Part shown: piece after piece, positions 12,400 through 35,415 of the stretch
Layout of the letters: each line of letters opens with the position of its first letter
Numbering within the stretch: the stretch's first letter is position 1
Source: a virus
DNA: 63,361 bases
Reading direction: 5' to 3' (one strand)
Virus record (IMG/VR): IMGVR_UViG_3300027974_000039
Location: 1-63,361 of that record
The notes under the pieces: generated by a model
Database searches by the model: none
Told to the model about the DNA's origin: nothing
The model's input: only the letters and a program-made list of their open reading frames with translations
Made by a program: the position numbers and the translations under genes

Positions 12400-15300
12400 A
12401 TGCCGCTAAACATTTTTGATGGTTCTAATTGGAACCCACTCAAAAAAATACAAATTCATGATGGTTCATCATGGAATGAATCAAAGTCGGCATTTATATG
12501 GAATGGATCTGAATGGAAATCATTACTAGATTTAAAACCAAAAAATACATCTTTACCAACATTATCTATACAAGGTAACGCATTTTTTTATTCTGCACAA
12601 GAAACAGTTATATCAACCAATGGGCAATGGGAAAATTCACCTACATCATTTGAGTATCAATGGCAAAAAGCTGCTTATCCTACATCTAATTGGTCAAATA
12701 TACTTGACAAAACATCTAGTACTTTATTTTTAAATGAAGATGAATGGGATTTAAATCAATCTTTAAAGTATGTTGGATATGCTGTTAGATGCAAAGTTAC
12801 AGCAATAAATTCTGCTGGAAAAAATTCTGAAGATGTTTACACACTTTCTAGCCCAGTAATTGCGCCAGCTCCATTAGGAGAAATTAGCGTAAATGTAGTT
12901 TCAAACGGAATTGTCGAATTTACTTGGCAAAAAGTAAAAGGCGCCAATGATTACTATATGCAATATCAAGGACCCCAAGTTCCATTTACTGAAATTATGA
13001 GCATGGTAAATAATACAGATGCTTCAAAGGGAGTATATTCTATACAAGGAACAACATGTAAATTTACTATTGATACTGGTTCAGCAGCTGGAACACTTGG
13101 AATTTTAATAAATCCAATGAATACATCAAATGCTTCTGGTATGTCATTAAGTGGATATGGTAGAAATGCATCAGTAATGGATCTAAAACCAATTAAAGCT
13201 ACAGTAACAGCAACAATGACATCGTTTAGTTGGGGCGGAAGACTAAGTTGGTCTACAAATTTAATACAACAAACTGGCTGGACAATATATAATGAAGGAC
13301 AGCTATACGCAGGATCATTCATGAATGACCCACTAGCAACGTCTTATGATATAAGTGAACTTGGTGTAGGCGGATCAAAATTTGGAGCATTTACAGTACA
13401 AATTACTGGAACAGCACCTAGATATACAGAAACTTCATGGACTTCTTCTCCATCTCTATCTATTGAATATCCAACAGTTCCATTGCCAGTTAATGAAGGT
13501 GCTCCAACAGTTTCTTTAAATGGAAGAACAGTAACTTCAACAAATGGTACATGGACAAATCAAAATTCTATCTATAATTATCTTATTGAATGGTATTCTA
13601 ATGGAGTACCAATGACGTTTGGTGTTGGACAATCAGTAGATTTTAGTACTAACACATCTTATGATAATACTCAAATATCATCTTCTGTTCAAATTTTAAC
13701 TACTGATTTAAGATTGACAGAAAAAATATATAGCAGCAATTCTGTAACAATGCTACCTTCAGCTGCACTTTGTGATACTGCAGCAAAATGTTTAACTCCA
13801 GCATGTCAAGCTTGTGTACGTACATACAACATAAATACAAATGTTGCTACTAGCGTTTGTCCATCTGGAACAATGATTCAACAAGTTTGTATAACTCCAG
13901 GAGTTTGTGACAATAGAACTACAGATGTTGGTTGTGTACCAGTAGGAACAGAATGGTATTGTACTGAATCATATAATGGCGGAGGAATTGGCAATTGTGG
14001 ATATACCTTATCTTCATTTAATAATTCTGGGTCTGGTTCTGGATATTCAAGATCATGTGTTGCTGGTGGTCCATATCCAGCATGTGGATCTACTGGTCCT
14101 GCTACTTCAGTAACTTATTATATTGGATCTTCTGGATGTGATTTTCAAAATGGCACATATTACATGCCTCCATCAGTAAGCGGTCCATTTACTAATGCAA
14201 CTATGCCTGGAGATTATGATAGCATTGGAAGTAGAACTTTTTCTAAATTTGTATATAGAGCAACATCAGCAGAAGCATTAGCAGCAGTACAACAAGCAGC
14301 TTGTACGCCAGCAACTCCACCAGCAACTCCACCAGCAACTCCACCAACAACAGTTATTTGTCAAAATGGAGTTAATTGTAATGAAGCAGCTTGTCAAACT
14401 TGTGGACCATCAAGTTATACTAGTACCAGACCATCATCTGCTTGTCCATCTGGTATAACAAACACTTATGTCTGTTATACTCCAGGCTCTTGTGACAATA
14501 TAACTACAGATACTACTTGTGTAGCACCAACAAGTATTTGGTACTGCACCGAAAGCTATAATGGTGGTGGGGTCGGCAACTGCGGATATACAACATCAGC
14601 ATTTGATAATTCTGCATCTGGATCTGGATACTCACGTTCTTGCAATACTACTGGATACATATCTTGTGGATCTACCAATCCTTCAACTCCGCCTGCTACC
14701 CCACCTTCAACTCCACCAGTCGTAGATTGTACTTCATGTTCCCCAACACAAAGTTATGATAGCACCAGACCAAACGCAGCTTGTCCTTCTGGAACAGAAA
14801 ATTATCATGTTTGTTGGACTCCAGGAAATTGTGAAAATATAATTACAGCAACTGGTTGCGTACCTGTTGCAACTCCACCAGCAACTCCACCTTCAACTCC
14901 ACCAGTCGTAGATTGTAGTTCATGTTCTCCAACACAAAGTTATTCAAGCACAAGACCAGTAGAAACTTACATCTGTCCTTCTGGAATAGAAAACACATAT
15001 GTTTGCTGGACTCCGTCAGGTTGTCCAAATATAGTTACAAGCACTGGCTGTGTTCCAGCATCCACACCACCAGCAACTCCGCCTGCTACTCCACCTGCAA
15101 CCCCACCTACTTACGATTGTAATACATGTAATAGTTATGGCGGAGCTTGTGGAACTTATGGAAATGGAACTTGGTGTATAACACCAGGATCTTGTCCAAA
15201 TATATGTCAAGGCGATCATCCAGATTATTTTGCTCCACCGTTCTTCCCACCGAGCTTCTTTGCTCCACCGTTCTTCCCACCGAGCTTCTTTGCTCCACCC

Positions 15301-15828
15301 ATGTTCTGGTTTGCTCCACCGTTCTTCCCACCGAGCTTCTTTGCTCCACCAGGATTTAAGGGCAAGTGTCTATCACCAGACTCAGTAATATTTACTAATA
15401 TTGGTTGGGTAAAAGCAAAAGACATTAAGCCTGGAGATAATATTATTACAATTAATGGAAATGATATTGACATTGAATCCGTAACTTTAAACAAAACATC
15501 TAAACCGCTCCCAACAAATGTTGAATTTTCAAATTCACAAGTTGTTTCAGTAGAAACAAAGCTTTCAACATTAATAGGATTTAATTACAGAGGAAAAGAT
15601 TACTCAATTACTCAGCCAATATTTGTAAAAACCCCAGAAGGAATTACTTATAAAAATGCTGGAGATATCAAAGTTGGAGACGCAATAATTAGCGTTGATT
15701 CTCAAGGAGAAATTTCTGAAATTATAGTAGATTCAATTCAAATTGATGATTTAGAGTCTACAGTTTATGATATTAGAACTTCACCAGAACCTTGGTTTAT
15801 TGTAAATTCAACTATAGCTATAGCTTAA
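12400..15828 (+). CDS. Giant multidomain adhesin with Cys-rich repeats, Pro/Phe repeats and C-terminal Hint domain
   Basis: The 1142-residue protein starts with short DGSxWN repeats (residues 4-45) and continues with Ig/Fn3-like domains to about 455. From 458 to about 940 it has disulfide-type repeats (patterns CPSGxxNxYVCWTPGxC and TGCVP) separated by ATPPATPP linkers. Then come FAPPFFPPSF repeats (943-985) and a Hint domain from C990 to the end. Hint block A is CLSPDSVIF, GWVKAKDIKPGD follows, and the C-terminal block is VYDIRTSPEPWFIVNS. The family normally self-cleaves or splices, but here the TxxH His and the final His-Asn are absent (SITQPIF and a terminal AIA). It is probably a receptor-binding tail component whose Hint part is a crosslinker, a crippled protease or a structural cap. 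Confidence 0.75.
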   Translation: MPLNIFDGSNWNPLKKIQIHDGSSWNESKSAFIWNGSEWKSLLDLKPKNTSLPTLSIQGNAFFYSAQETVISTNGQWENSPTSFEYQWQKAAYPTSNWSNILDKTSSTLFLNEDEWDLNQSLKYVGYAVRCKVTAINSAGKNSEDVYTLSSPVIAPAPLGEISVNVVSNGIVEFTWQKVKGANDYYMQYQGPQVPFTEIMSMVNNTDASKGVYSIQGTTCKFTIDTGSAAGTLGILINPMNTSNASGMSLSGYGRNASVMDLKPIKATVTATMTSFSWGGRLSWSTNLIQQTGWTIYNEGQLYAGSFMNDPLATSYDISELGVGGSKFGAFTVQITGTAPRYTETSWTSSPSLSIEYPTVPLPVNEGAPTVSLNGRTVTSTNGTWTNQNSIYNYLIEWYSNGVPMTFGVGQSVDFSTNTSYDNTQISSSVQILTTDLRLTEKIYSSNSVTMLPSAALCDTAAKCLTPACQACVRTYNINTNVATSVCPSGTMIQQVCITPGVCDNRTTDVGCVPVGTEWYCTESYNGGGIGNCGYTLSSFNNSGSGSGYSRSCVAGGPYPACGSTGPATSVTYYIGSSGCDFQNGTYYMPPSVSGPFTNATMPGDYDSIGSRTFSKFVYRATSAEALAAVQQAACTPATPPATPPATPPTTVICQNGVNCNEAACQTCGPSSYTSTRPSSACPSGITNTYVCYTPGSCDNITTDTTCVAPTSIWYCTESYNGGGVGNCGYTTSAFDNSASGSGYSRSCNTTGYISCGSTNPSTPPATPPSTPPVVDCTSCSPTQSYDSTRPNAACPSGTENYHVCWTPGNCENIITATGCVPVATPPATPPSTPPVVDCSSCSPTQSYSSTRPVETYICPSGIENTYVCWTPSGCPNIVTSTGCVPASTPPATPPATPPATPPTYDCNTCNSYGGACGTYGNGTWCITPGSCPNICQGDHPDYFAPPFFPPSFFAPPFFPPSFFAPPMFWFAPPFFPPSFFAPPGFKGKCLSPDSVIFTNIGWVKAKDIKPGDNIITINGNDIDIESVTLNKTSKPLPTNVEFSNSQVVSVETKLSTLIGFNYRGKDYSITQPIFVKTPEGITYKNAGDIKVGDAIISVDSQGEISEIIVDSIQIDDLESTVYDIRTSPEPWFIVNSTIAIA
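15229..15357 (+). repeat. FAPP/FFPP-coding tandem repeat
   Basis: About four copies of a roughly 30-nt unit encode FAPPFFPPSF, built from TTCTTCCCACCG (FFPP) and TTTGCTCCA (FAP) words. The array lies directly before the Hint domain. A larger relative is at 22114-22380. Confidence 0.8.
15564..15665 (+). repeat. 102-nt segment identical to one in the second Hint gene
   Basis: These 102 bases in the middle of the Hint domain are identical, base for base, to 22587-22688, while flanking Hint sequence has diverged. This indicates recent recombination or gene conversion between the two genes. Confidence 0.85.
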
Positions 15829-16342: not shown

Positions 16343-17047
16343 ATGACTACTATCTTTGACCTTGAAAAACCAAATATTAGAATTATAAAAAACTTTTTAT
16401 CAAAAGAAGAATGTGATGAAATTTTAAAGGTTAAAGAAATGTCAGAAGTTTTATGGTCATTAGACTATGATCTTAATTATCCAAAAAAAGAAAATGTTGC
16501 GGGAAACCTTCAATACTCTGTATCTCAATGGGATGGAATGTGCATTAATATAACCCGTCCTGGATTTGCAGAAAGATATGGCATTAACCAAAAATATTAT
16601 GATTTATTGGCAGATAGAATGAAAATCCATATGGAAGAAAAATTTAATGTTACTGGATTACAAACAGAACAATATTTAATTAATAGATGGAGAATTGGAA
16701 GAGAACAGACCCCTCACCTTGATTATTTTTATGAAGAAGAACCTGACCATGACTATGAAAAACTTGCTAGACATAACATACCAAAATCCTTTTTAGATAC
16801 ATTTGGCCAGATGTTTCAAACAAAACATTATTCATCTTTGGTATACCTAAATGAAGATTACACTGGAGGCGAGCTTTATTTCCCAGAACACAACTTTATT
16901 ATAAAGCCAGAAGTTGGAACTTTAATATGTTTAAAGGGAGATGAGCACAGCTTGCATGGAGTCAAAAAAGTAGAGTCTGGAACTAGATATACGATATCAT
17001 TATTTTGGGAAGATTTAGAATATAAAAATAAAATTGGCGTCAAATAA
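16343..17047 (+). CDS. 2-oxoglutarate/Fe(II) dioxygenase, prolyl-4-hydroxylase-like
   Basis: The 234-residue protein has the triad H125-x-D127 (TPHLDYF), H205 (SLHGV) and R215 (SGTRYTISLFW). The jellyroll signature VYLNEDYTGGELYFPEH precedes the distal histidine, as in prolyl 4-hydroxylase-like enzymes. It lies between a zinc-ribbon gene and a fibre gene on the same strand. Substrate not determined; a Pro in a nearby fibre protein is a reasonable candidate. Confidence 0.88.
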   Translation: MTTIFDLEKPNIRIIKNFLSKEECDEILKVKEMSEVLWSLDYDLNYPKKENVAGNLQYSVSQWDGMCINITRPGFAERYGINQKYYDLLADRMKIHMEEKFNVTGLQTEQYLINRWRIGREQTPHLDYFYEEEPDHDYEKLARHNIPKSFLDTFGQMFQTKHYSSLVYLNEDYTGGELYFPEHNFIIKPEVGTLICLKGDEHSLHGVKKVESGTRYTISLFWEDLEYKNKIGVK

Positions 17048-21525: not shown

Positions 21526-22851
21526 ATGTCAAAACAAGCAGGTAGAATGAGCCAAGGAGCTAATGACTTCTTAGCTCCGTATGCTCCAACAATTGGTACA
21601 GCAACAAATGTAGGCTCAAGTAGAGCTTTCAATAATGGACGGGCAGATGTAACTTTTACAGCTGACTCAAGAAATGCTGCAGATTCATTTACTGTTACCT
21701 CTTCTCCAGGAAACTTTCTTGGAACTGGGGCATCATCTCCAATTTCAGTTACAGGCCTTCAGTCAGGAGTTGCTTACACATTTACAGTAACCGCAACAAA
21801 TGCAGCAGGAACATCAGCTCCATCTGAAGCATCTAATTCTGTTACAGCTACAACTGTACCTCAAGATCCACAAAGTGCAACTGCAACTGCAGGAATTAAT
21901 CAAAACACTATTTCTTGGACAGCTCCAAATAATGGTGGATCAGCAATAACAAATTATTATATTGTTGGAAATGATGGAACATCTGGTAACACAGCATCTA
22001 CATCAATAGTAATTGCAGATACTGCTAATACTTCTCAATATTATAATATTTATGCAGATAACGCTAATGGTAGATCAATTGCTTCAGGTAATACAGCCAC
22101 TATTACAACTCTAGCACCGTTCTTCCCACCGTTCTTCCCACCGTTCTTCCCACCGAGCTTCTTTGCTCCACCGTTCTTCCCACCGTTCTTCCCACCGAGC
22201 TTCTTTGCTCCACCGTTCTTCCCACCGTTCTTCCCACCGAGCTTCTTTGCTCCACCGAGCTTTTTTGCTCCACCGTTCTTCCCACCGTTCTTCCCACCGA
22301 GCTTCTTTGCCCCACCAAGCTTCTTTGCTCCACCAGGATTCTGGTTTGCCCCACCAAGCTTCTTTGCTCCACCAGGATTTAAGGGCAAGTGTTTATCACC
22401 AGACTCAGTAATATTTACTGCAGATGGATGGGTACAAGCTAAAAATATTAAAGTTGGAGATGCAATATTAACTATTGACGGAAGTCATATTAATCTTGAA
22501 TCAATAACTTCAAATAAAATTTCTGAATCACTTCCAGAAAATGTTAAATTTACAGATGGTCAAGTTGTTTCTGTTACAGAAAAAACTTCAACATTAATAG
22601 GATTTAATTACAGAGGAAAAGATTACTCAATTACTCAGCCAATATTTGTAAAAACCCCAGAAGGAATTACTTATAAAAATGCTGGAGAAATTGAAATAGG
22701 AGAAATAATCCTACATGTTGATTCTGAAGGATCAGTATCAGAGGTTCCAGTAACTTCAATAGAAAAGGATGAAGCAGAATCAACTGTTTATGATGTTAGA
22801 ACATCTCCACAGCCATGGTTTATAGTTAATTCCTTTATAGCAATAGCATAA
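21526..22851 (+). CDS. Fn3 adhesin with Pro/Phe repeats and C-terminal Hint domain
   Basis: The 441-residue protein starts with a short basic N-terminus. Two fibronectin type III domains follow (about 20-112, with GLQSGVAYTFTVTATNAAG, and 115-195). A long FFPPFFPPSFFAPP array covers residues 196-286, and a Hint domain runs from C289 to the end. The Hint domain has CLSPDSVIF, GWVQAKNIKVGD, SITQPIF and VYDVRTSPQPWFIVNS; like its partner at 12400 it lacks the TxxH His and the terminal His-Asn. The shared layout of linker plus Hint suggests both adhesins are processed or attached in the same way. A strong terminator follows. Confidence 0.78.
   Translation: MSKQAGRMSQGANDFLAPYAPTIGTATNVGSSRAFNNGRADVTFTADSRNAADSFTVTSSPGNFLGTGASSPISVTGLQSGVAYTFTVTATNAAGTSAPSEASNSVTATTVPQDPQSATATAGINQNTISWTAPNNGGSAITNYYIVGNDGTSGNTASTSIVIADTANTSQYYNIYADNANGRSIASGNTATITTLAPFFPPFFPPFFPPSFFAPPFFPPFFPPSFFAPPFFPPFFPPSFFAPPSFFAPPFFPPFFPPSFFAPPSFFAPPGFWFAPPSFFAPPGFKGKCLSPDSVIFTADGWVQAKNIKVGDAILTIDGSHINLESITSNKISESLPENVKFTDGQVVSVTEKTSTLIGFNYRGKDYSITQPIFVKTPEGITYKNAGEIEIGEIILHVDSEGSVSEVPVTSIEKDEAESTVYDVRTSPQPWFIVNSFIAIA
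22114..22380 (+). repeat. Long FFPP/FAPP-coding tandem repeat
   Basis: About 265 bp of repeated TTCTTCCCACCG, GAGCTTC and TTTGCTCCA words encode an aromatic-proline chain of roughly 90 residues. Unit order varies, as expected from slippage or unequal recombination. Confidence 0.85.
22587..22688 (+). repeat. 102-nt segment identical to one in the first Hint gene
   Basis: This segment is identical to 15564-15665 and encodes the central Hint part starting STLIGFNYRGKDYSITQP. Neighbouring Hint sequence differs at many positions. Confidence 0.85.
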
Positions 22852-22932: not shown

Positions 22933-23646
22933 ATGACTACTACAAACAGCCCATATGGATTTTCATCAAAAGAAGAACTTTTCCCAGGAGTCTGGGTATA
23001 TAGAGATGTAATTAAAAAAGAATTAAATGTAATAGATAGACTTAACTCAATTGGAGAAGCATCTATCAGAGACAATGAATCAAGATTTAGTTGGACTTTT
23101 GGATTTGTTGGATACAGCGAAAAAAGACCTTCATACAGAGATTGTGAAGATATTAAAGTTGGAGAAATAAATAATCCAACAAATGAAACTCAAACGCTAG
23201 TTGCTGATTTGTGGTCTGATTTAAAAAAAGTACAAGATGTTGCAGTTCAAGATTATTGTAATAAATACAATGTAAAAATGAATTTTTGGGAAGTTATGAA
23301 TTGCATACGATATGGCAAAGGACAGCATTTTCAAGAGCATGCAGATCATGGATTTTCATATAGTGCAACAGTGTCTTTAGTAGCATATATAAATGATGAT
23401 TATGAAGGCGGTAATTTGTTTTTTCCTAAAATTGGCTTAGACATTAAGCCAAAAGCTGGAGACCTATATATTTTCCCATCTACCTATTTGTTTTCTCATA
23501 GAGCAATGCCAGTAATTGAAGGACAAAAATTTTCTATAGTTACGATGCTTGATTATAATGATCATGCCCACAAACAAGAGTTTTTTGAAGCAAGAGCCAG
23601 ATGGGTTGAAGAAGACGCAAAAACTGGCAAAAATTCTTATGCATAA
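22933..23646 (+). CDS. 2-oxoglutarate/Fe(II) dioxygenase, prolyl-4-hydroxylase-like
   Basis: The 237-residue protein has H136-x-D138 (EHADHG), H189 (FSHRA) and the core AYINDDYEGGNLFFPK. The 2-oxoglutarate-binding basic residue is K199 (EGQKFSIVT) rather than the usual Arg; some relatives use Lys. It opens the oxygenase/DUF6065 cluster with its own leaderless promoter. The next gene starts inside its last codons (shared TTATGCATAA region). Confidence 0.85.
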   Translation: MTTTNSPYGFSSKEELFPGVWVYRDVIKKELNVIDRLNSIGEASIRDNESRFSWTFGFVGYSEKRPSYRDCEDIKVGEINNPTNETQTLVADLWSDLKKVQDVAVQDYCNKYNVKMNFWEVMNCIRYGKGQHFQEHADHGFSYSATVSLVAYINDDYEGGNLFFPKIGLDIKPKAGDLYIFPSTYLFSHRAMPVIEGQKFSIVTMLDYNDHAHKQEFFEARARWVEEDAKTGKNSYA

Positions 23647-24352
23647 AATTAAAGCCTATACTATAAGAGAAGGCTACGGAGAAGTTACGCCTCTTTCTAT
23701 TAAAAGAGAGTGGATGGATAATACTTATGATGCACATGCATACAAGTGTTTTCCAGTAGGCCTTACAAATCAATTAGGATGGGGAATATCTTTTCCAGAA
23801 GATATATCTTTTATATGGGATGGTATTTGCGATAGTACTCCAGATCATGTGAAAATTTTATCTGGAGAAAAATATGCTTATTCTGGAAGAGCTAATGGAA
23901 CAATAAGTTTTAATACAGGCTTAATGTTTGTTACAGATGAAAATACAAGTCTTTTATCTATGCCTGTCCCAAATTTATTTTTTGAAGGTGCTGTTCCATT
24001 TACAACTTTAGTAAGTACATCATTTTTCCCTGGGGAATTGCCGTGTGCTTGGATGATAACAAAAGCAAATGAAATTATAACAATTAAAGCGGGGACTCCA
24101 ATAATTGCAATATTACCTATAGATCTAGAAGGACTTCAAAACTCAGAAATTAACTTTGAGCCTATGTCATCGGCACCTCAGCAAAAATTTGATTCAACTG
24201 AATATTCAAATGTTGTTTATAATCTTAATAGATCAGCTACTTGGTCTAATTTTTATAGAGATGCAGTAGATCATTTAAAAAACAGTATAGGGAAACATCA
24301 AATTAAAGCAATAAGACTAAAGGTAAATAATGAAAACAATACAAGTTTATAA
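23639..24352 (+). CDS. DUF6065-like protein, first copy
   Basis: The 237-residue protein starts at the ATG at 23639, overlapping the oxygenase end by 8 nt. An earlier in-frame ATG deep inside that gene is less likely. Conserved blocks are KREWMDNTYDAHAYKCFPVG, GWGISFPEDISFIWDG, SMPVPNLFFEGA and IKAGTPIIAILPIDL. These fit the DUF6065 family, whose function I do not know. The block ending IKAGTPIIAILP recalls a cupin-like beta barrel. A second copy follows directly. Placement between oxygenases suggests a linked pathway. Confidence 0.65.
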   Translation: MHKIKAYTIREGYGEVTPLSIKREWMDNTYDAHAYKCFPVGLTNQLGWGISFPEDISFIWDGICDSTPDHVKILSGEKYAYSGRANGTISFNTGLMFVTDENTSLLSMPVPNLFFEGAVPFTTLVSTSFFPGELPCAWMITKANEIITIKAGTPIIAILPIDLEGLQNSEINFEPMSSAPQQKFDSTEYSNVVYNLNRSATWSNFYRDAVDHLKNSIGKHQIKAIRLKVNNENNTSL

Positions 24353-25025
24353 AACAGGCGGTCCAGAAACAATTTTATCCCCACTTGAAACAGATAGAGA
24401 GTGGATGCATGAAAATAAATATGGCTATAATTGTTTTCCAATAACTCTTCCAAACAAAATGGGTTGGGCAATATCTTTTCCAAAAGATATATCTTTTATT
24501 TGGCATGGTAGCAATAAGCAAGGTCCCGATGGTGATATAGAAATTTTATCTGGAGAAGAACATTGTTATTTTGAAAGAGGCGGTGGAGTTATTGGATTTC
24601 CCACTAATCTAGTTTTTAAAACAGAAGAAGACTTAAGCATAGTAACAATGCCAGTTCCAAATCAATTTATAGATGGAGCTCAATGTTTTACATCAATTTT
24701 ATCAAGTTCATTTTACACTGGAGCACTACATGTAGTTTGGAAAGTAACTTCTCCTAACAAAATTATAACAATAAAGGCTGGCACCCCTGTTGCAGCCGTA
24801 TTGCCAATTTCACTAAAAGAGATAAATAATATAAAGGCAGTTATTTCAGAAGAATCAATTTCAGATACGGTTCATGATGGAGATTACGTTGATGCCATGA
24901 CCAAATATGGAATGGATAATATGAGAACTTCAGATTGGTATAAAAAAGGAATAGATCATAAAGGTAATATAGTAGGAAAACATGAAATAACAAGCTTTAA
25001 ATTTGAAGTAGAAGAAAGAAAATGA
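24330..25025 (+). CDS. DUF6065-like protein, second copy
   Basis: The 231-residue protein repeats the pattern of its upstream neighbour: DREWMHENKYGYNCFPITLP, GWAISFPKDISFIWHG, TMPVPNQFIDGA and IKAGTPVAAVLPISL. A tandem duplication is therefore clear, though the pair has diverged strongly. It overlaps the first copy by 23 nt and is probably coupled. Both copies keep the Trp/Gly/Phe core, so both are likely functional. Confidence 0.65.
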   Translation: MKTIQVYKTGGPETILSPLETDREWMHENKYGYNCFPITLPNKMGWAISFPKDISFIWHGSNKQGPDGDIEILSGEEHCYFERGGGVIGFPTNLVFKTEEDLSIVTMPVPNQFIDGAQCFTSILSSSFYTGALHVVWKVTSPNKIITIKAGTPVAAVLPISLKEINNIKAVISEESISDTVHDGDYVDAMTKYGMDNMRTSDWYKKGIDHKGNIVGKHEITSFKFEVEERK

Positions 25026-25033
25026 TTATATGG

Positions 25034-25039
25034 TAAAAT
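25034..25039 (+). promoter_or_regulatory. -10 box (TGG-TAAAAT)
   Basis: TAAAAT preceded by TGG lies 41 nt before the ATG at 25081, with a GAGGAAAT ribosome site. The -35 is weak. Confidence 0.4.
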
Positions 25040-25080
25040 TAGATAAACAGCACTTTTTATGTATTATGAAGAGGAAATAA

Positions 25081-25755
25081 ATGAAACCGTCAAATGCTTG
25101 GTCACATGAACCACCAAAGTCTATAACTCCATCTGGATTTTTTGGAAACTCAATAGATAACATTGTTGAAATAAAAGATTTTTTAAGTTTAGATGAACGC
25201 AAGCGTCTAATGGACTTTGCTCTGAATAATAAAATTTGGGATATAACTGAAACTCACAGAGATGCAGATGGATTAGTTTTGTATGATCACACTGTTTGGG
25301 AAGACAGAGTATGCACTTATAATTCTTTAATGGCTTCAGATCCTTCTATATTAGATTTGATTTATAGCATGATTAATAGATTAAAAATAGAAGTAGATGC
25401 ATTTTTTAATGTTGATGCAAAAGAAACTGGACCTGCAATTGTTAGATGGCCCATTGGAGCTCGTCAGGAACCACACGCAGATAAAGAATTTCATTCTGGC
25501 CCAGAAAAAGGAAGAGCAAATGACTTCCCTTGGTATGACCTAGCTGGACTATTTTATTTTAATGATGATTATGAAGGTGGAGAATTATATTTTCCACAGC
25601 ATGGAATTGAATTTCAGCCAGTTGCAGGAGCAGCATATTTTTTCCCAGGTGATATGTATTATACACACGGTGTCCGCCCAGTAAAATCTGGAAATAGATT
25701 TACATCGCCATTTTTTTGGACGATAAATAAACATACAGGAGAAAAACAGCCATGA
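25081..25755 (+). CDS. 2-oxoglutarate/Fe(II) dioxygenase, prolyl-4-hydroxylase-like
   Basis: The 224-residue protein has H132-x-D134 (EPHADKEF), H196 (YTHGVRP) and R206 (SGNRFTSPFFW), with the core FYFNDDYEGGELYFPQH. The complete triad and the 2OG Arg predict an active hydroxylase. Its stop overlaps the next oxygenase start by 4 nt (ATGA), so these are translated as a pair. Confidence 0.88.
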   Translation: MKPSNAWSHEPPKSITPSGFFGNSIDNIVEIKDFLSLDERKRLMDFALNNKIWDITETHRDADGLVLYDHTVWEDRVCTYNSLMASDPSILDLIYSMINRLKIEVDAFFNVDAKETGPAIVRWPIGARQEPHADKEFHSGPEKGRANDFPWYDLAGLFYFNDDYEGGELYFPQHGIEFQPVAGAAYFFPGDMYYTHGVRPVKSGNRFTSPFFWTINKHTGEKQP

Positions 25756-26603
25756 GTGAATTAAGCTATATAGAACTTTATCCAAAAATTGATGTATACA
25801 GAAATGTATTAGAAGATCCAGAAGCTTTATATAAAACTATGAATAAATCTGAAAAAACTTCTGAAGGCAAATATTTTTTAAAGACTTGGGATCCATGGGC
25901 ACATTTTGGAACTTACACACAAAAAAAAGATATAAGAGAAGTTGCTGATGATGTTTTGTCACATGAAATGTTTATTGAAGAAAAAAAGTTTGTTGAAGAT
26001 GTAGAGTCTGCATATAATAAAGTTATTTTAGATTATGTTGAAAGACATAAAATTAACCTTCCAGAAGGGTGGAGATTTAGCGGAGCTTCATATTCTAAAT
26101 ATAATGCAGGAATAAATAATTTAAATAATAATTTAACAATGCAATATCATACAGATCATATTACATCACAAAGAGATATGCCTGGAGATAAATTTTTTAT
26201 AACCTGTACAATGTATATAAATGATGATTATGATGGTGGAGATATTGAATTTTATATTGATGGGACAATAATTAATCATAAGCCTAAGCCTGGAGACATA
26301 TTGGTATTTCCATCTACTCAACCATATTATCATGGTGTTAAAACAATTAACACAAATGAAAAGTTTTTTGTTAGAAACTTTATTATGACTCCTCACAATG
26401 GAACAGAAGAATGGCTTGCAAACCAAAGAAAATTTGGTGCTTACAGATGGGCAAAAATGGAACAAGAAAGAATAGACAATGAGGATAAAAGAAATATGCT
26501 TTATTTTAATGATGGCGTATTAGTTTCTTACGAAGATCATATTAAAAAACAATTTGGTAGCGAAGAAAAATTACATGACCAGTATCCAAAGGAGATGATG
26601 TAA
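25752..26603 (+). CDS. 2-oxoglutarate/Fe(II) dioxygenase, divergent member
   Basis: The 283-residue protein has H133-x-D135 (YHTDHI), H194 (YYHGVKT) and the core MYINDDYDGGDIEFYIDG. The 2OG anchor position is K204 (NEKFFVRNF). An extra N-terminal region of about 100 residues and a C-terminal extension of about 75 residues distinguish it from its neighbours. It is coupled to the genes on both sides. Substrate unknown. Confidence 0.85.
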   Translation: MSELSYIELYPKIDVYRNVLEDPEALYKTMNKSEKTSEGKYFLKTWDPWAHFGTYTQKKDIREVADDVLSHEMFIEEKKFVEDVESAYNKVILDYVERHKINLPEGWRFSGASYSKYNAGINNLNNNLTMQYHTDHITSQRDMPGDKFFITCTMYINDDYDGGDIEFYIDGTIINHKPKPGDILVFPSTQPYYHGVKTINTNEKFFVRNFIMTPHNGTEEWLANQRKFGAYRWAKMEQERIDNEDKRNMLYFNDGVLVSYEDHIKKQFGSEEKLHDQYPKEMM

Positions 26604-26604
26604 C

Positions 26605-27357
26605 ATGGAAAGAGATATGATTATAACAAGACATAAGTCAGATATTGTAACTTATGAAAACTTTCTTACTCCAGAAGAATGCAAATCTGTAATTGAAGTT
26701 TTAGCAATTAAAATGGAAAAAGAAGAATTAAAATGGATGCCAATTTCTTTTTATGAGTCTTATTCTTCTGGTATGCCAGAAGTAAATGACCCAGATACAA
26801 TTGCATGCGGATTACCAGGAGATTTTTTTCAAGTATTGAGACAGCGAGTCATTGATGCAACAGCAGATATGGCAGGTAAAAATCCTGAGCAGATGTCGCA
26901 AATAAGCTGGCACTCTCAAAGATGGGCACCTGGAGCATTTGCTAATATGCACTCAGATAATACAGACAATGAAGGAAAATCTGGTGCATTTACTAGAAGT
27001 AGATATGCAACATTTATTTATTTAAATGATGACTTTGAAGATGGCATATTAAACTTTAAACATGGTCTCACCATTGTGCCAAAAACTGGGTTAATGGCAA
27101 CATTTGCTGGTGGATTTGAAAATACTCATGAAGTTACAACAGTCAAGAAAAATATTAGATATACGCTGGGATCTTTTTGGGATGATAGAGAAGAGTCAGA
27201 TTATCCACAAGAAATAAGAGATGCTTGGGCCACAGAGCTTGCAGAAGTTAGAGCTCATCAAAAAATAGAAGCTGTTGAGTGGGAAGAAATTCGTAATAAA
27301 GGATTAAGAATAACTAATGCTGGAGAAACTTATCCAGCTTCAGAAGTGGAGAACTAG
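26605..27357 (+). CDS. 2-oxoglutarate/Fe(II) dioxygenase
   Basis: The 250-residue protein has H116-x-D118 (NMHSDNT), H175 (NTHEVTT) and R185 (NIRYTLGSFWDD). The core is YLNDDFEDGILNF, where the usual Gly-Gly pair is replaced by Asp-Gly. It starts 1 nt after the previous stop, with an AGGAG site inside the upstream gene. A C-terminal helical extension (about 195-250) is unique to this copy. Confidence 0.85.
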   Translation: MERDMIITRHKSDIVTYENFLTPEECKSVIEVLAIKMEKEELKWMPISFYESYSSGMPEVNDPDTIACGLPGDFFQVLRQRVIDATADMAGKNPEQMSQISWHSQRWAPGAFANMHSDNTDNEGKSGAFTRSRYATFIYLNDDFEDGILNFKHGLTIVPKTGLMATFAGGFENTHEVTTVKKNIRYTLGSFWDDREESDYPQEIRDAWATELAEVRAHQKIEAVEWEEIRNKGLRITNAGETYPASEVEN

Positions 27358-27358
27358 T

Positions 27359-28009
27359 ATGGAAAATAATATTGAATTTAAACAATTTCAAATGTTTGAC
27401 CTAAAACCACTTTCAAATGATATCTGGTATTGGGAAAATGTACTAAGTTTTCCAGAAGACCTAAAAAAATTTATTGATACTATAGATGATGAACCAGAAT
27501 CTTATTCAAGAATATCAAAATGGGAAAATTGGACGGCAAGCAATGATAGTAGTCTTGTATATGGCAAAACAAAAGTTATCAACAAAGATAATTTAAAAAT
27601 TTCTACTGGGTCAGACTCTATAGATAAAAGAACATTATACATTGCTAATAGTATTTTAATGGCATTTGAAATGTGCACAGAAAGATATTTAGCTATACGT
27701 AATTTAGATAAAAATAATTATAATTTAAATCTTGATAGAATTACTATTAAAGCATGGAATGAAGGACAGTCCATGGGCCCACATTTTGATGGTCAAGATG
27801 GAAATAAAGATTTGGCATTTTCTTTGGTTGCATATATTAATGATGACTATGAAGGCGGAGAAATTAGCTTTCCAAATCATAATATTACTATTAAGCCAAA
27901 GGCTGGAAGTTTAATAATGTTCCCATCGCAAGAGCCATATATTCATGAAGTAAAACCAATTACATCTGGTACTAGATATATGAGCCCTGCACACGTATAT
28001 ATTAAGTAG
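27359..28009 (+). CDS. 2-oxoglutarate/Fe(II) dioxygenase, prolyl-4-hydroxylase-like
   Basis: The 216-residue protein starts at the ATG at 27359 directly after the previous stop, with GGAG about 9 nt upstream. An earlier in-frame ATG at 27317 would overlap the upstream gene by 41 nt and is less likely. It has H142-x-D144 (GPHFDGQ), H196 (YIHEVKP) and R206 (SGTRYMSP), with the core AYINDDYEGGEISFPNH. It is the last oxygenase before the collagen-like fibre gene. Confidence 0.87.
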   Translation: MENNIEFKQFQMFDLKPLSNDIWYWENVLSFPEDLKKFIDTIDDEPESYSRISKWENWTASNDSSLVYGKTKVINKDNLKISTGSDSIDKRTLYIANSILMAFEMCTERYLAIRNLDKNNYNLNLDRITIKAWNEGQSMGPHFDGQDGNKDLAFSLVAYINDDYEGGEISFPNHNITIKPKAGSLIMFPSQEPYIHEVKPITSGTRYMSPAHVYIK

Positions 28010-28029: not shown

Positions 28030-29145
28030 ATGACTAACACAGGTATAAATAACTGGCGTTTCCCAGACTATACAGACACCCCAGACGTCCCCAGAGACCT
28101 TGGAAACCTTGGTACTGACATAGCCGCATACATAGCCTCTCATCCAGGCCCACAGGGTCCTTCAGGCACCTTATCCGTAGGTACTGTAACTACTGTTAGC
28201 GCATCTACTCCAGCATCAGTTGTTAATGTTGGGACATCTTCTAATGCTATATTAAACTTAACATTACCTAGAGGAATAGATGGAATTATTGGTGGCCCAG
28301 GCCCATCAAATGTTTTAGAGATTGGCACCGTTACTAGTGGAGTTACTCCAAATGCTACCATAACTGGAACAAGCCCAACACAAACATTAAATTTAGTTTT
28401 ACCACAAGGTCCTCAAGGAGTGCAGGGTCCGCAGGGTCCGCAAGGCCCAACAACAGTAGCCGTTGGAACTACAACAACAGGTGCTGCTGGAACAAATGCT
28501 TCAGTAACAAATACTGGAACAGCAACAAATGCTGTGTTTGCATTTACAATTCCAAGAGGCGCAACTGGAGCAACTGGCGCACAGGGAATACAAGGCATAC
28601 CTGGTTCTAGCGCAACAATTGATCCAATTCCAACTACAATAAGTTTAAATATACCAATTTCATCTGGCTATGGAGTAAACTCTAATTGGTATCCATTTGC
28701 AAACAATTTGTATTCAATTGGTCAGCCAATTGATGCTGGCTCAGGAGTTACATCAAACAGATTTTGGAAAACAATATATTCTAACACTGGAACTATAAAT
28801 ACTTCTGATCAAAGATTAAAAACGGATGTATCTGTATCTACACTCGGCCTTAATTTTATAAATGATTTAAATCCAGTAAGCTATAAGTTTATTGAAGGTG
28901 GCAAAGAAATAGTTGACGGCGATCTAGTTTCTATTCCTGGATCAAGAACTCATTATGGACTTATTGCACAAGAAGTAAAAGAAGTTTTAGACGCATCTGG
29001 AGTATCTGACTTTGCTGGTTGGGTAAAGATGGACATGTCAGTAGAAGATTCAATGCAAGGACTTAGATATGATCAGTTTATTGCTCCACTTATTAAAGCA
29101 GTACAAGAGCTTACAGCGAGAGTTAAAGCCCTAGAAGAGCAGTAA
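28030..29145 (+). CDS. Collagen-like tail fibre with S74 self-cleaving chaperone domain
   Basis: The 371-residue protein has Gly-X-Y segments GPQGVQGPQGPQGPT (about 128-142) and GATGATGAQGIQGIPG (about 177-193), plus a short one near residue 41. The C-terminal Peptidase_S74 intramolecular chaperone starts near residue 258 (SDQRLKTD, then HYGLIAQEVKEVL). S74 domains trimerise the fibre and then cut themselves off at the Ser. Gly-X-Pro stretches are the classic substrate of prolyl hydroxylases, and four oxygenase genes lie directly upstream. Confidence 0.85.
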   Translation: MTNTGINNWRFPDYTDTPDVPRDLGNLGTDIAAYIASHPGPQGPSGTLSVGTVTTVSASTPASVVNVGTSSNAILNLTLPRGIDGIIGGPGPSNVLEIGTVTSGVTPNATITGTSPTQTLNLVLPQGPQGVQGPQGPQGPTTVAVGTTTTGAAGTNASVTNTGTATNAVFAFTIPRGATGATGAQGIQGIPGSSATIDPIPTTISLNIPISSGYGVNSNWYPFANNLYSIGQPIDAGSGVTSNRFWKTIYSNTGTINTSDQRLKTDVSVSTLGLNFINDLNPVSYKFIEGGKEIVDGDLVSIPGSRTHYGLIAQEVKEVLDASGVSDFAGWVKMDMSVEDSMQGLRYDQFIAPLIKAVQELTARVKALEEQ

Positions 29146-31035: not shown

Positions 31036-31374
31036 ATGGAAATCTTAAATCAAAAAAGCCAAATTATTGAAGAGACACGCCTAGGCATATACGTATGGGA
31101 AATGCCAGATGGCCGATGGATCGGTGACGATGATGGCAATTTTCTTTCTATAACATCTACAAAAGGCAACAGATCTAAAATTGCCGCACTTGCAGATGCT
31201 GTTAGACATTATGGCATTAGCGAAGGCCAACCTAAATTTCTTTCAGGTAAAAGAAAAATTGATGATGAAGAATTTGAACATCAAAACCAAAGACTTAAAT
31301 GGGGACTTACTCCAGATCCACTTGATATTGGAGAATATAAAGACTCAGTCTTAAGAGGGGGAGCAGTAAAATGA
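31036..31374 (+). CDS. Small conserved-type protein upstream of portal
   Basis: The 112-residue protein has a beta-rich front (LGIYVWEMPDGRWIGDDDGN) and a helical tail with KWGLTPDPLDIGEYKD. It overlaps the portal gene by 4 nt (ATGA), so the two are coupled. Position suggests a head-assembly or packaging accessory, but no terminase motifs are present. Confidence 0.55.
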   Translation: MEILNQKSQIIEETRLGIYVWEMPDGRWIGDDDGNFLSITSTKGNRSKIAALADAVRHYGISEGQPKFLSGKRKIDDEEFEHQNQRLKWGLTPDPLDIGEYKDSVLRGGAVK

Positions 31375-32954
31375 CACAATTTTTAGAAGATGGACCAGAA
31401 GATACATACGAGGTATCTGTTAAAAATAGCTCAGACCTATTTTCATTTAAGAAAGAAAAAGAACACGTAGACCCATTTGCTATTGGTATAGATGACCTTA
31501 AGAAGGTAAGAGGCCTAGGCACAAATTTTAAGAGAAAAATAAATAGAGATTTTGCAAAATCATTTACTGGTAAAGATGGAGCAGGTACACAACAGAATCT
31601 ATTACAGTCAGCAGTTACTGGATATGCAATGTTTGACCTTGTTCAACCAGTATATAATTTAGAATACCTTTCTCAAATATATGAAGTTTCAACATACAAC
31701 TATGCAGCCATTAATGCTAAGGTAGCAAACATTGTTGGTCTTGGATACTCCTTTATGGAAACAAGAAAAACAAACGATGCAATTGATGCAATAACAGATG
31801 ACAAGCAGTTAGATAGAGCACGTAGAAAGCTTAATAAGTTAAAGCAGGATCTTCAAGATTGGTTAGATGCAACAAATGATGAAGATACATTTACTGAAAC
31901 ATTAATAAAAGTATATACAGACCTAGAAGCAACTGGTAATGGCTACTTAGAGGTAGGTAGAACTACAGGCGGAGACATTGGATATATTGGACATATCCCA
32001 GCAAAAACTATGCGTGTAAGAAGACTTAGAGATGGATTTATGCAATTGCTTTATGGCAAGGCTGTATTCTTCAGAAATTTTGGAGATACAGAAACCATTA
32101 ATCCAATTGGTGATTCAGAAGATAGACCAAATGAAATCATTCATTTAAAGAAATATACTCCAATGAATAATTATTATGGTATCCCAGATATCGTAGCAGC
32201 ACAGATGTCGCTTGCTGGAAATGAATTTGCTGGCAGATATAACCTAGATTACTTTGAAAATAAAGCGGTTCCAAGATATATTATTACGGTTAAAGGAGCA
32301 AAGCTTTCTCCAGAGTCAGAAAGAAAATTGCTTGAATTCTTCCAGGTTGGATTAAAGGGAAAGAATCACAGATCACTATATATCCCTCTACCAGCCGACA
32401 CTCAAGATAATAAGGTTGAATTTAAAATGGAGCCAGTTGAAGCTGGTGCTCAAGAGTCTTCATTTAATATTTATAGACAATCAAATAGAGATGAAATTCT
32501 ATTGGCACACAGAGTTCCAATTAATAAAATTGGTGTCCCAGAAGGTGTATCTTTGGCAAATGCTAGAGATGCAGATAAAACATTTAAAGAGCAGGTTTGC
32601 CGACCAGCTCAAATGAGACTTGAAAAAAGAATTAATTCAATAATTGAAGAAAAGACAGATGCATTAAAAATTAAATTTGAAGAGTTGACTTTAACTGACG
32701 AAGACACCCAAAGTCAAATAGATGAAAGATATTTAAGAATGCAGGTTATTACTCCGAATGAAGTTAGAATTAGAAAAGGAATGATTCCTGTTGACGGCGG
32801 AGATGAAATGGTTGAATTAAAGCCACAGCAAGCTGCTGATCAAAAAGCAACTGCTGGTAAAACTAGGGCCAGGGATTCAGAAAGATCTGCTGCATCTTCC
32901 GATAAAGTCGGAGAAGGCAGAAATGCAAAAGGTGATGGAAAAAAGGTTGACTAA
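31371..32954 (+). CDS. Portal protein (PBSX-type)
   Basis: The 527-residue protein resembles PBSX-family portals. Features are VYNLEYLSQIYEVSTYNYAA, then IVGLGYSF, a helical stem region (residues about 140-175), YLEVGRTTGGDIGYIGHIPA, and YFENKAVPRYIITVKGAKLS. The last 60 residues are Lys/Asp-rich and disordered. It forms the dodecameric DNA gate of the capsid. It is followed by the protease-scaffold and capsid genes in the expected order, and no terminase is seen upstream in this window. Confidence 0.85.
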   Translation: MTQFLEDGPEDTYEVSVKNSSDLFSFKKEKEHVDPFAIGIDDLKKVRGLGTNFKRKINRDFAKSFTGKDGAGTQQNLLQSAVTGYAMFDLVQPVYNLEYLSQIYEVSTYNYAAINAKVANIVGLGYSFMETRKTNDAIDAITDDKQLDRARRKLNKLKQDLQDWLDATNDEDTFTETLIKVYTDLEATGNGYLEVGRTTGGDIGYIGHIPAKTMRVRRLRDGFMQLLYGKAVFFRNFGDTETINPIGDSEDRPNEIIHLKKYTPMNNYYGIPDIVAAQMSLAGNEFAGRYNLDYFENKAVPRYIITVKGAKLSPESERKLLEFFQVGLKGKNHRSLYIPLPADTQDNKVEFKMEPVEAGAQESSFNIYRQSNRDEILLAHRVPINKIGVPEGVSLANARDADKTFKEQVCRPAQMRLEKRINSIIEEKTDALKIKFEELTLTDEDTQSQIDERYLRMQVITPNEVRIRKGMIPVDGGDEMVELKPQQAADQKATAGKTRARDSERSAASSDKVGEGRNAKGDGKKVD

Positions 32955-34351: not shown

Positions 34352-34365
34352 GGTAGGTGAATTAT

Positions 34366-35415
34366 ATGAGCAATGAAACATTAGAAAAAGCAATCGCAGC
34401 AGGCACAACAGCCTCAACTGGTTTTGCATCAACAGCAGGTGGAGCAGGAGTACACACAGCGTCTGAAAACGGCAACGGTGGTCTTCTAAATCCAGAACAA
34501 TCAGCTCGCTTCCTAGACTATATGTTCGATTCAACCGTAATTGGAAAAGTCGCACGTACAGTTCGAATGAAGTCAGACACAACAGAGATTGATCGTATGT
34601 CAGTAGGAGAAAAGCTTGTTAAGCTTGCATCCGAAGGAGACAACACAGGTGTTAACTCAGCTGTAACTTTCTCAAAGATCTCTCTAACAACAAAGAAGCT
34701 TCGCATGGATTGGGAACTTTCAACTGAGTCTCTAGAAGACAATATTGAAGGTGCCGATCTTGAAGATCACATTGCACGTTTGATGGCAACACAAGCAGGA
34801 AATGACATCGAAGATGTTATTCTTAACGGTGATGAGTCACTTTCAAGCGATGCACTATACAAGTCATTTAATGGTGTTGTAAAGAAGGCTAAGACCTCTG
34901 GTCGTGTAGTCGATGCAGCAGGTGCGGGAATTTCCCGTGCTGTATTTAACTCAGCGCTAAAGGCTCTTCCACGTAAGTACAAGCAACGTCGTACAGACCT
35001 TCGCTTCCTTGCAGGATCAAACTTGATCCAAGATTACTTATACTCAAACTCACAGAACATACAGAATGTTACTCCACAAGATATTGCCTCTGGCATTATC
35101 CGTGGTGATGTTCCTGTTCTAGGAGGTCCTGCAGGATATGTAGCTCCATACGCATTTGGTATTCCAATCGTTGAAGTTCCACTTCTTCCAGAGACACAGG
35201 CTGGTACATATGCAAGCCCATCAGGATCACACGGAGATGTCCACTTGACATTCCCTAACAACGTGGTAATTGGTGTAAAGCGTGACGTAACAGTTTACCG
35301 CTTCTTCTGGCCACGTAAGGACTCAATCGAGTACACAATGTATACTCGTGTTGGTGTTCAAATCGAGCAGGCAGACGCTTGGGTCGTTGTAAAGAACGTT
35401 AAGGTTGCTTCCTAA
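34366..35415 (+). CDS. Major capsid protein (HK97 fold)
   Basis: The 349-residue protein follows the protease-scaffold, as expected for the capsid subunit. A GTG three codons upstream (34357) is possible, but GGTAGGTG lies 8 nt before the ATG at 34366. HK97-like features include an N-arm followed by LLNPEQSARFLDYMFDSTVI, the E-loop region LVKLASEGDN, and a spine helix with EDHIARLMATQAGNDIE. A C-terminal domain ends near TMYTRVGVQIEQADAW. It uses more CGT and C-ending codons than the fibre genes, consistent with very high expression. A strong terminator follows. Confidence 0.85.
   Translation: MSNETLEKAIAAGTTASTGFASTAGGAGVHTASENGNGGLLNPEQSARFLDYMFDSTVIGKVARTVRMKSDTTEIDRMSVGEKLVKLASEGDNTGVNSAVTFSKISLTTKKLRMDWELSTESLEDNIEGADLEDHIARLMATQAGNDIEDVILNGDESLSSDALYKSFNGVVKKAKTSGRVVDAAGAGISRAVFNSALKALPRKYKQRRTDLRFLAGSNLIQDYLYSNSQNIQNVTPQDIASGIIRGDVPVLGGPAGYVAPYAFGIPIVEVPLLPETQAGTYASPSGSHGDVHLTFPNNVVIGVKRDVTVYRFFWPRKDSIEYTMYTRVGVQIEQADAWVVVKNVKVAS

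What the first reader, a model, noticed from the sequence alone, without database searches (positions are those of the whole stretch)
23639..25025. Tandem DUF6065-like genes embedded in the oxygenase operon
Two diverged copies, overlapping by 23 nt, sit between P4H-like oxygenases. Both keep REWM, GWxISFPxDISFIW, MPVPNxFxxGA and IKAGTP blocks. The conserved pairing suggests they act with the oxygenases, perhaps as substrate carrier or second catalytic step. Function of the family is not known to me.
Basis: partly seen in the sequence, partly recalled or inferred. Interest (0 to 1): 0.5.

Follow-up and report, generated by a model that had tools for sequence, protein, structure and literature searches.

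The report
Phage dUTPase-fold proteins paired with oxygenase
Two neighbouring genes of unknown function in an uncultured phage encode proteins predicted to have the fold of dUTPase, an enzyme that cleans up nucleotides, but without its catalytic residues, and in related phages they sit next to one particular oxygen-using enzyme, which suggests they help it modify something.

Summary
Window 23639-24352 (d1) and 24330-25025 (d2) overlap by 23 nt, share 41% identity, match Pfam DUF6065 and lie among 2OG-Fe(II) oxygenase genes.

Main result: the AlphaFold model of d1 (pLDDT 92) resembles trimeric dUTPases. A homologous family, phrog_7084, modelled separately, does too. Phage phrog_7084 rows keep the motif-3 Asp and motif-4 Gln (39 of 39); phage DUF6065 rows keep neither (0 of 70). 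DUF6065 looks like an exapted, non-dUTPase member of this fold. By sequence alone the dUTPase link is not significant.

At the main site 107 of 107 DUF6065 genes with both neighbours visible adjoin a 2OG oxygenase (unassigned genes 174 of 532), and the upstream one is the orthologue of window 22933-23646 in 101 of 105 first copies. The reverse search gave 65 of 65 distinct loci. Shared descent may explain part. Twelve bacterial regions showed no such oxygenase.

The tandem pair is uncommon (6 of 105). d2 is an old paralogue, recently exchanged together with the next oxygenase. Other phages fill that slot with phrog_7084 or a third DUF6065 type.

Best guess: scaffold or substrate-binding partner of the upstream oxygenase. 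Fold well supported; function inferred.

The parts
23639..24352 (+). d1: DUF6065 protein, 237 aa; predicted trimeric-dUTPase (beta-clip) fold without the dUTPase catalytic motifs
24330..25025 (+). d2: second DUF6065 protein, 231 aa, 41% identical to d1; old paralogue rather than a recent tandem duplicate
22933..23646 (+). ox0: 2OG-Fe(II) oxygenase; near-invariant upstream partner of DUF6065; invariant HxD, H and K in 13 aligned orthologues; overlaps d1 by 8 nt
25081..25755 (+). ox1: 2OG-Fe(II) oxygenase that closes the DUF6065 slot downstream
25752..26603 (+). ox2: 2OG-Fe(II) oxygenase
26605..27357 (+). ox3: 2OG-Fe(II) oxygenase
27317..28009 (+). ox4: 2OG-Fe(II) oxygenase
16343..17047 (+). ox5: sixth 2OG-Fe(II) oxygenase, about 6 kb upstream
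21526..22851 (+). 441-aa protein with fibronectin III domain, PFFPPSFFAPP-type proline repeats and a Hint/intein-like C-terminus; candidate substrate (inference)
   Evidence: (fn3 above cut-off; Hint_2 and Intein_splicing below cut-off)
28030..29145 (+). 371-aa tail-fibre-like protein with collagen-like GPQG repeats and a Peptidase_S74 chaperone domain; candidate substrate (inference)
   Evidence: (S74 above, Collagen below cut-off)
24300..25780 (+). recombination tract: 100-base blocks 97-100% identical to L006 except three at 90-93%; flanking blocks 67-91%; carries d2 and ox1

Best explanation
d1 and d2 are divergent members of the trimeric-dUTPase (beta-clip) fold that lack the dUTPase catalytic residues. 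In this phage group DUF6065 is the dedicated partner of one 2OG-Fe(II) oxygenase, ox0; in the window the two genes overlap. Most likely it is a non-dUTPase, probably trimeric, binding or scaffold subunit that presents a substrate to ox0, perhaps the proline-rich or collagen-like fibre proteins encoded next to it. Shown: homology to phrog_7084, predicted fold, absence of the motifs, strict linkage in this phage group. Inferred: trimer, contact with ox0, substrate, scaffold role. A second dUTPase-fold protein in the slot before ox1 (d2, a third DUF6065 type, or phrog_7084) may make a mixed oligomer.
For: Model of d1: mean pLDDT 92.4, pTM 0.86. All 50 Foldseek PDB rows listed are dUTPases, best E 7.1e-4, probability 1.00; VIA-align Z 10.9 (3lqw, 126 aligned, 5.0 A) and Z 10.7 (8hrv_B, 116 aligned, 2.9 A). 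The phrog_7084 homologue, modelled separately, gives only dUTPases and dCTP deaminases in its 50 Foldseek rows, best E 1.7e-3, and VIA Z 9.6, 3.1 A over 126. Profiles: phage DUF6065 vs phage phrog_7084 E 2.9e-5, probability 74; a mixed rhizobial/halovirus/phage phrog_7084 set vs bacterial DUF6065 E 1.7e-10, probability 97. No acidic residue in columns 121-130 and no Gln at column 157 in any of 70 phage DUF6065 rows; Asp156, Asp158 and Gln186 in 39 of 39 phage phrog_7084 rows. Linkage: 107 of 107 vs 174 of 532 unassigned genes; upstream gene ox0 in 101 of 105 main-site first copies, the others being 3 contig ends and one divergent oxygenase; reverse 65 of 65 distinct loci. Proline-rich proteins in 49 and collagen-like in 41 of 53 loci with enough flank, by crude patterns without a control.
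Against: Only 2 Foldseek PDB matches for d1 reach E 0.001, and 0 for the phrog_7084 model; TM-scores normalised by d1 are 0.34-0.41 in the rows shown. At sequence level DUF6065 does not reach dUTPase: no PF00692 match; hhalign P 0.16 and, with other row sets, 0.28 and 0.097, the last in another register, against 0.32 and 0.30 for an oxygenase control; no dUTPase in a PDB profile search. The motif register thus rests on a weak alignment and a multiple alignment with relatives. Linkage may reflect common descent in one phage group. Of three second-site copies one adjoins an oxygenase of another type and two have a short gene between. Twelve bacterial regions show no such oxygenase. Nothing shows physical contact, oligomer or substrate. 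Invariant Cys37, Asn44, Asn112, Tyr206 and His220 could equally form a new active site.
Confidence: 0.4

Rival explanations
1. DUF6065 is an enzyme in its own right, with a new active site built on the dUTPase fold (invariant Arg23, Trp25, Cys37, Asn44, Asn112, Tyr206, His220), doing a second step on the oxidised product or on a small molecule.
For: 19 columns are invariant over 70 divergent phage rows, and RxWM, AYxCxP, the Asn and GW recur in the five bacterial DUF6065 proteins aligned. The Cys, the following Gly-Trp/Tyr and the P-x-N position also recur in phrog_7084. A Glu stands at motif 3 in the bacterial DUF6065 proteins (such as GVIETDW) and an Asp in phage phrog_7084 (GIIDND).
Against: The phage DUF6065 branch lacks the acid that most of its relatives have (0 of 70). 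No pathway neighbour common to phage and bacterial members was seen.
Confidence: 0.25
2. DUF6065 is a virion or assembly protein (a trimeric tail component or fibre chaperone) whose gene lies in the tail region; the oxygenases are neighbours rather than partners.
For: The main-site locus lies near proline-rich and collagen-like genes in 49 and 41 of 53 loci. The dUTPase fold is trimeric in known members (recalled), like tail fibres. In halovirus HF1 the phrog_7084-like gene lies at the edge of a block with baseplate and minor virion protein genes.
Against: Second-site copies lie in a region with DNA-polymerase-like and RecA-like genes (read by eye), again near an oxygenase. Rhizobial plasmids carry relatives with no phage structural gene annotated beside them.
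Confidence: 0.15
3. The family handles nucleotides: DUF6065/phrog_7084 bind or hydrolyse a (modified) nucleotide and the oxygenases belong to a nucleotide or DNA modification pathway.
For: Fold, motif 3/4 residues and an Arg-x3-Gly-Gly-x-Tyr tail resembling motif 5 in phrog_7084. phrog_7084-like genes lie next to thymidylate synthase in HRTV-7 and near ribonucleotide reductase, with small genes between, in HF1 and S-RIM4. A PF00692 dUTPase is found in 0 of 15 related phage records, which may be fragments.
Against: DUF6065 itself lacks these motifs, and so does the S-RIM4 relative (GIFHTD, no Gln). The main operon sits among structural genes, and its oxygenases match the 2OG-FeII_Oxy_3 model (Tet_JBP only at E 0.05-0.08 in two of them).
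Confidence: 0.1
4. The linkage is synteny inherited in one phage group, with no functional coupling.
For: Main-site loci share much the same gene order, and ox0 and DUF6065 may travel together by descent.
Against: Order varies around the ox0-DUF6065 unit: optional phrog_7084, second DUF6065, extra oxygenase, sulfotransferase-like and Asp/Asn-hydroxylase-like insertions. L136 has a rearranged order, and the separate second site again lies near an oxygenase. DUF6065 proteins in the set are down to 40% identical to d1.
Confidence: 0.1

Closest known systems
Trimeric dUTPase (Pfam PF00692)
   Same: Predicted fold; the stretch STSFFPGELP...IKAGTPIIAILPI aligns with DYRGEV...GDRIAQ, weakly.
   Different: No motif-3 Asp, no motif-4 Gln, no PF00692 match; family-specific RxWM...AYxCxP...N..GW region near the N-terminus.
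PHROG phrog_7084 (unknown function)
   Same: Homologous and same predicted fold; follows DUF6065 in 47 of 105 main-site first copies; rhizobial relatives are annotated 'DUF6065 family protein'.
   Different: Phage rows keep motif-3 GIIDND, motif-4 Gln and an R-x3-GG-x-Y tail.
Adenovirus E4-ORF1 (exapted dUTPase-fold protein)
   Same: Viral protein with the dUTPase fold and no dUTPase activity (PMC4006922, one passage of the Introduction seen). Adenovirus proteins named 24, 32 and 17 kDa, which I take from memory to be E4-ORF1 forms, are in the BFVD Foldseek list.
   Different: Acts on host PI3K signalling in animal cells; no oxygenase link known to me.
Bacterial DUF6065 proteins
   Same: Pfam family; RxWM, AYxCxP, GW and W-G positions and the Asn of the P-N position.
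   Different: Glu at motif 3 (E-x-[DN]-W); behind autotransporter genes in Sinorhizobium plasmids; no oxygenase found nearby.

Membership tests
DUF6065 (PF19541) | Score above the curated cut-off (26.6 bits) | tested here: met
   103.6 and 90.2 bits
Trimeric dUTPase (PF00692) | Beta-clip dUTPase fold | tested here: met
   Predicted model of d1 only; Foldseek and VIA-align
Trimeric dUTPase (PF00692) | Match to the PF00692 profile | tested here: not met
   No match up to E 0.1 in d1 or d2; 0 of 15 records including the window
Trimeric dUTPase (PF00692) | Motif-3 catalytic Asp | tested here: not met
   0 of 70 rows have an acidic residue in columns 121-130; register depends
Trimeric dUTPase (PF00692) | Motif-4 Gln | tested here: not met
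   0 of 70 rows at column 157
Trimeric dUTPase (PF00692) | Homotrimer with shared active sites | not testable with these tools
   No complex prediction offered
phrog_7084 | Match to the PHROG profile | tested here: inconclusive
   Weak matches, E 1.2e-5 (d1) and 5e-5 (d2); clear homology by profiles but a separate subfamily
Cupin | Cupin fold / metal site | tested here: inconclusive
   No cupin among the 50 rows shown; absence from a list is not exclusion; no cupin Pfam match in d1 or d2 up to E 0.1
2OG-Fe(II) oxygenase (PF13640), neighbours | Score above the cut-off (27 bits) | tested here: met
   Six genes, 29.4-51.5 bits

The most novel reading that the evidence does not exclude
Phages of this group carry a dedicated virion-hydroxylation complex: a pseudo-dUTPase oligomer (DUF6065, with d2 or phrog_7084 as second subunit) that holds trimeric proline-rich or collagen-like fibres for a partner prolyl-hydroxylase-like oxygenase, i.e. 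a phage counterpart of collagen hydroxylation built on a recycled nucleotide enzyme.
Probability: 0.15. Interest if true: 0.8.

Novelty: new variant of a known kind. Interest (0 to 1): 0.55.

Why it matters
It proposes a fold and an evolutionary origin for a family of unknown function; a full-text search for 'DUF6065' in the held library found 0 papers. What phage 2OG oxygenases do could then be tested on a two-gene unit.

Tried and rejected
Cupin reading: not supported by the fold lists (absence from a list is not exclusion). Simple recent tandem duplication of d1 into d2: d2 groups with the second-site copies (99/95, 97/93). Holding d2 with five close d1 rows is rejected (AU p 0.021); holding it with the ten-row d1 clade is not (p 0.106). 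The groups were named after a first tree was seen and long branches are involved, so an old duplication near d1 is not excluded. Fusion of DUF6065 with an oxygenase: none among the ORFs of the 212 loci then held (the only double match was a halovirus protein matching both DUF6065 and phrog_7084).

Named phages: no DUF6065 match in 50,697 records, with d1 or with a bacterial query. Genome collection scan with A1: 86 pattern matches, one relative. Phylum sample around it: 2 of 99 genomes, one of them the starting genome. PDB sequence searches with d1, A3 and A4: nothing relevant. My regular expression for Hint domains found 0 of 53, a failure of the pattern, since Pfam shows weak Hint matches in the window protein. 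Text searches on phage 2OG oxygenases and collagen-like fibres: listings only, none of those papers read; the dUTPase/E4-ORF1 search led to two passages of one paper. Genome locus L326 was only scanned with profiles. The control genome Caulobacter vibrioides rings for DUF6065 but was given no handle, so its neighbourhood was not seen.

Rows dropped: one search reduced 191 viral loci to 104 by identical DUF6065 C-termini, and gene calls there favour profile matches; second-site copies and L051 were not in it. One search counted 114 distinct DUF6065 genes: 105 main-site first copies, 6 second copies, 3 second-site. ox0-ox5 labels are best BLAST matches among the six window oxygenases. One search dropped 15 of 80 as duplicates. 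A3 holds 68 of 70 representatives plus d1 and d2, some with N-termini trimmed; A4 holds 39 of 39.

Full report
WHAT IS THERE. d1 (23639-24352) and d2 (24330-25025) overlap by 23 nt, are 41% identical and both match Pfam DUF6065 well above its cut-off. d1 also overlaps the upstream oxygenase by 8 nt. Five 2OG-FeII_Oxy_3 genes surround them and a sixth lies at 16343-17047. NG86 dN/dS is 0.04-0.12 (d1, four pairs) and 0.19 (d2, one pair), as for genes under purifying selection. The window is a 63-kb virus record. Its portal and major capsid proteins are 55-57% identical to those of Streptomyces phages, so an actinobacterial host is possible but not shown.

NEIGHBOURHOOD. I fetched relatives by DUF6065 itself, not by oxygenase (one search used a phrog_7084 protein). 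Of 191 viral loci, 104 differ in their first DUF6065 protein. In these, 107 of 107 DUF6065 genes with both neighbours present adjoin an oxygenase, 52 of 53 phrog_7084 genes do, and 174 of 532 unassigned genes do. labels 114 distinct DUF6065 genes: 105 first copies at the main site, 6 second copies and 3 second-site copies. Of the 105, the upstream gene is ox0 in 101, a contig end in 3 and a divergent oxygenase in one (L205). The downstream gene is ox1 in 51, phrog_7084 in 47, a second DUF6065 in 6 and another gene in one (L136). The reverse test with an ox0 alignment gave 65 of 65 distinct loci with DUF6065 directly downstream, 15 of 80 being dropped as duplicates. These are the 80 best matches of a longer list, so distant ox0 relatives are untested. 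Three phages carry a further DUF6065 elsewhere, one beside an oxygenase and two separated from one by a gene of about 100 codons.

BACTERIA. The linkage is not general. In Sinorhizobium plasmids DUF6065 follows an autotransporter gene. phrog_7084-like proteins of rhizobial plasmids, annotated as DUF6065 family, were viewed in six regions; two further plasmid regions had no annotation. The plasmid gene tables are incomplete, so I also searched the ORFs of these 11 plasmid regions and one genome region with a profile of 90 phage oxygenases: no match in 12 of 12. The profile recovers 1062 of the 1063 phage oxygenase ORFs but could miss distant bacterial ones. Of three named viruses with phrog_7084 relatives, S-RIM4 has one weak oxygenase match (E 5.8e-5) about 2.3 kb away, HRTV-7 and HF1 none.

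FOLD. AlphaFold2 on 70 aligned sequences gave a confident model of d1 (pLDDT 92.4, pTM 0.86). Foldseek lists only dUTPases in its 50 PDB rows; the best E is 7.1e-4, two matches reach 0.001, and TM-scores are 0.34-0.41 by the query and up to 0.69 by the shorter targets. VIA-align gives Z up to 10.9. A search of predicted viral structures lists first three uncharacterised phage proteins (30, 25 and 17% identical), then among others dUTPases and adenovirus proteins. A model of a phrog_7084 protein from a separate alignment gives dCTP deaminases and dUTPases only, best E 1.7e-3, Z 9.6. The two families are homologous by profile: E 2.9e-5, probability 74; a mixed phrog_7084 set against bacterial DUF6065, E 1.7e-10, probability 97. 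Sequence profiles reach dUTPase only weakly: phrog_7084 P 0.009, with GIIDND on TIDADY and the Gln loops in register; DUF6065 P 0.16. With other row sets phrog_7084 gave 0.007 and 0.012, DUF6065 0.28 and, in another register, 0.097; an oxygenase control gave 0.81-0.84 and 0.30-0.32. So DUF6065 by sequence alone is hardly better than the control, and PDB profile searches found no dUTPase. The relationship rests on predicted structure and on phrog_7084 as the link.

MOTIFS. Across 39 phage phrog_7084 rows the two Asp of GIIDND, the motif-4 Gln and an Arg-x3-Gly-Gly-x-Tyr tail resembling motif 5 are invariant. Across 70 phage DUF6065 rows columns 121-130 hold no acidic residue and the Gln position is Ala/Ser/Thr/Asn/Val. 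Five bacterial DUF6065 proteins have Glu there (ETDW, EADW, ETNW); five rhizobial and two halovirus phrog_7084-like proteins have GIVDTDTY- or GVVDIDRY-like stretches, close to the dUTPase TIDADY; the S-RIM4 relative has GIFHTD and lacks both Asp and Gln (dUTPase motif numbers recalled). So the phage DUF6065 branch lacks the acid that most relatives have. It keeps its own invariant set (including R23, W25, M26, Y35, C37, P39, N44, G47, W60, N112, Y206, G218, H220), which marks a conserved site of unknown use.

THE PAIR. Two DUF6065 genes in tandem were found in eight contigs: the window, and those of L001, L002, L003, L006, L039, L113 and L114. d2 is not a fresh copy of d1: it groups with the second-site copies (99/95 and 97/93). 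A recent duplication from five close d1 rows is rejected (p 0.021), an older one is not (p 0.106); long branches call for caution. L113 and L114 carry a third type, 50-53% identical to d1 and 46-47% to d2. Between the window and L006 the blocks from about 24300 to 25780, holding d2 and ox1, are 97-100% identical except three at 90-93%, while flanking blocks are 67-91%: a recent exchange of a d2-ox1 block. That different second members settle in the same slot hints that two dUTPase-fold subunits work together; this is inference.

MECHANISM. The reading I favour is a non-dUTPase binding or scaffold protein acting with ox0. Candidate substrates are the neighbouring proline-rich proteins (49 of 53 loci) and collagen-like proteins (41 of 53), found by crude patterns without a control. 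A precedent for a viral dUTPase-fold protein without dUTPase activity is adenovirus E4-ORF1 (PMC4006922, one Introduction passage). Trimer, contact with ox0 and substrate are not shown. Rivals are a new enzyme, a virion component, a nucleotide role, or inherited synteny.

VERDICT. The fold assignment and the near one-to-one link with ox0 in this phage group are the new points; function stays open.

Noticed in passing
12400-15828 and 21526-22851: Two proteins share proline-rich PFFPPSFFAPP-type repeats and a similar C-terminus (CLSPDSVIFT...FIVNS.IAIA); for the second Pfam gives weak Hint/intein matches.
   Followed up: partly
24300-25780: Recombination tract 97-100% identical to L006 (three blocks 90-93%) with flanks 67-91%, carrying d2 and ox1.
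   Followed up: yes
L113:8699-9403 and L114:2106-2810: A third type of second DUF6065 gene in the same slot.
   Followed up: partly
L137, L138, L139: Second-site DUF6065 copies in a region with replication-like genes, again near a 2OG oxygenase.
   Followed up: partly
L019:8067-9342 and L039:7386-8643: A sulfotransferase-like gene and an Asp/Asn beta-hydroxylase-like gene lie upstream of ox0 in this branch (L039 proteins matched; L019 by sequence resemblance only).
   Followed up: no
L055, L324, L056: phrog_7084 relatives lie next to thymidylate synthase (HRTV-7) or near ribonucleotide reductase (HF1, cyanophage S-RIM4).
   Followed up: partly
L052:6448-9729 and L054:8073-9732: In Sinorhizobium plasmids a DUF6065 gene starts 10 nt after the end of an autotransporter gene.
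   Followed up: no
31371-32954 and 34357-35415: Portal and major capsid proteins 55-57% identical to Streptomyces phages of about 120-133 kb.
   Followed up: no
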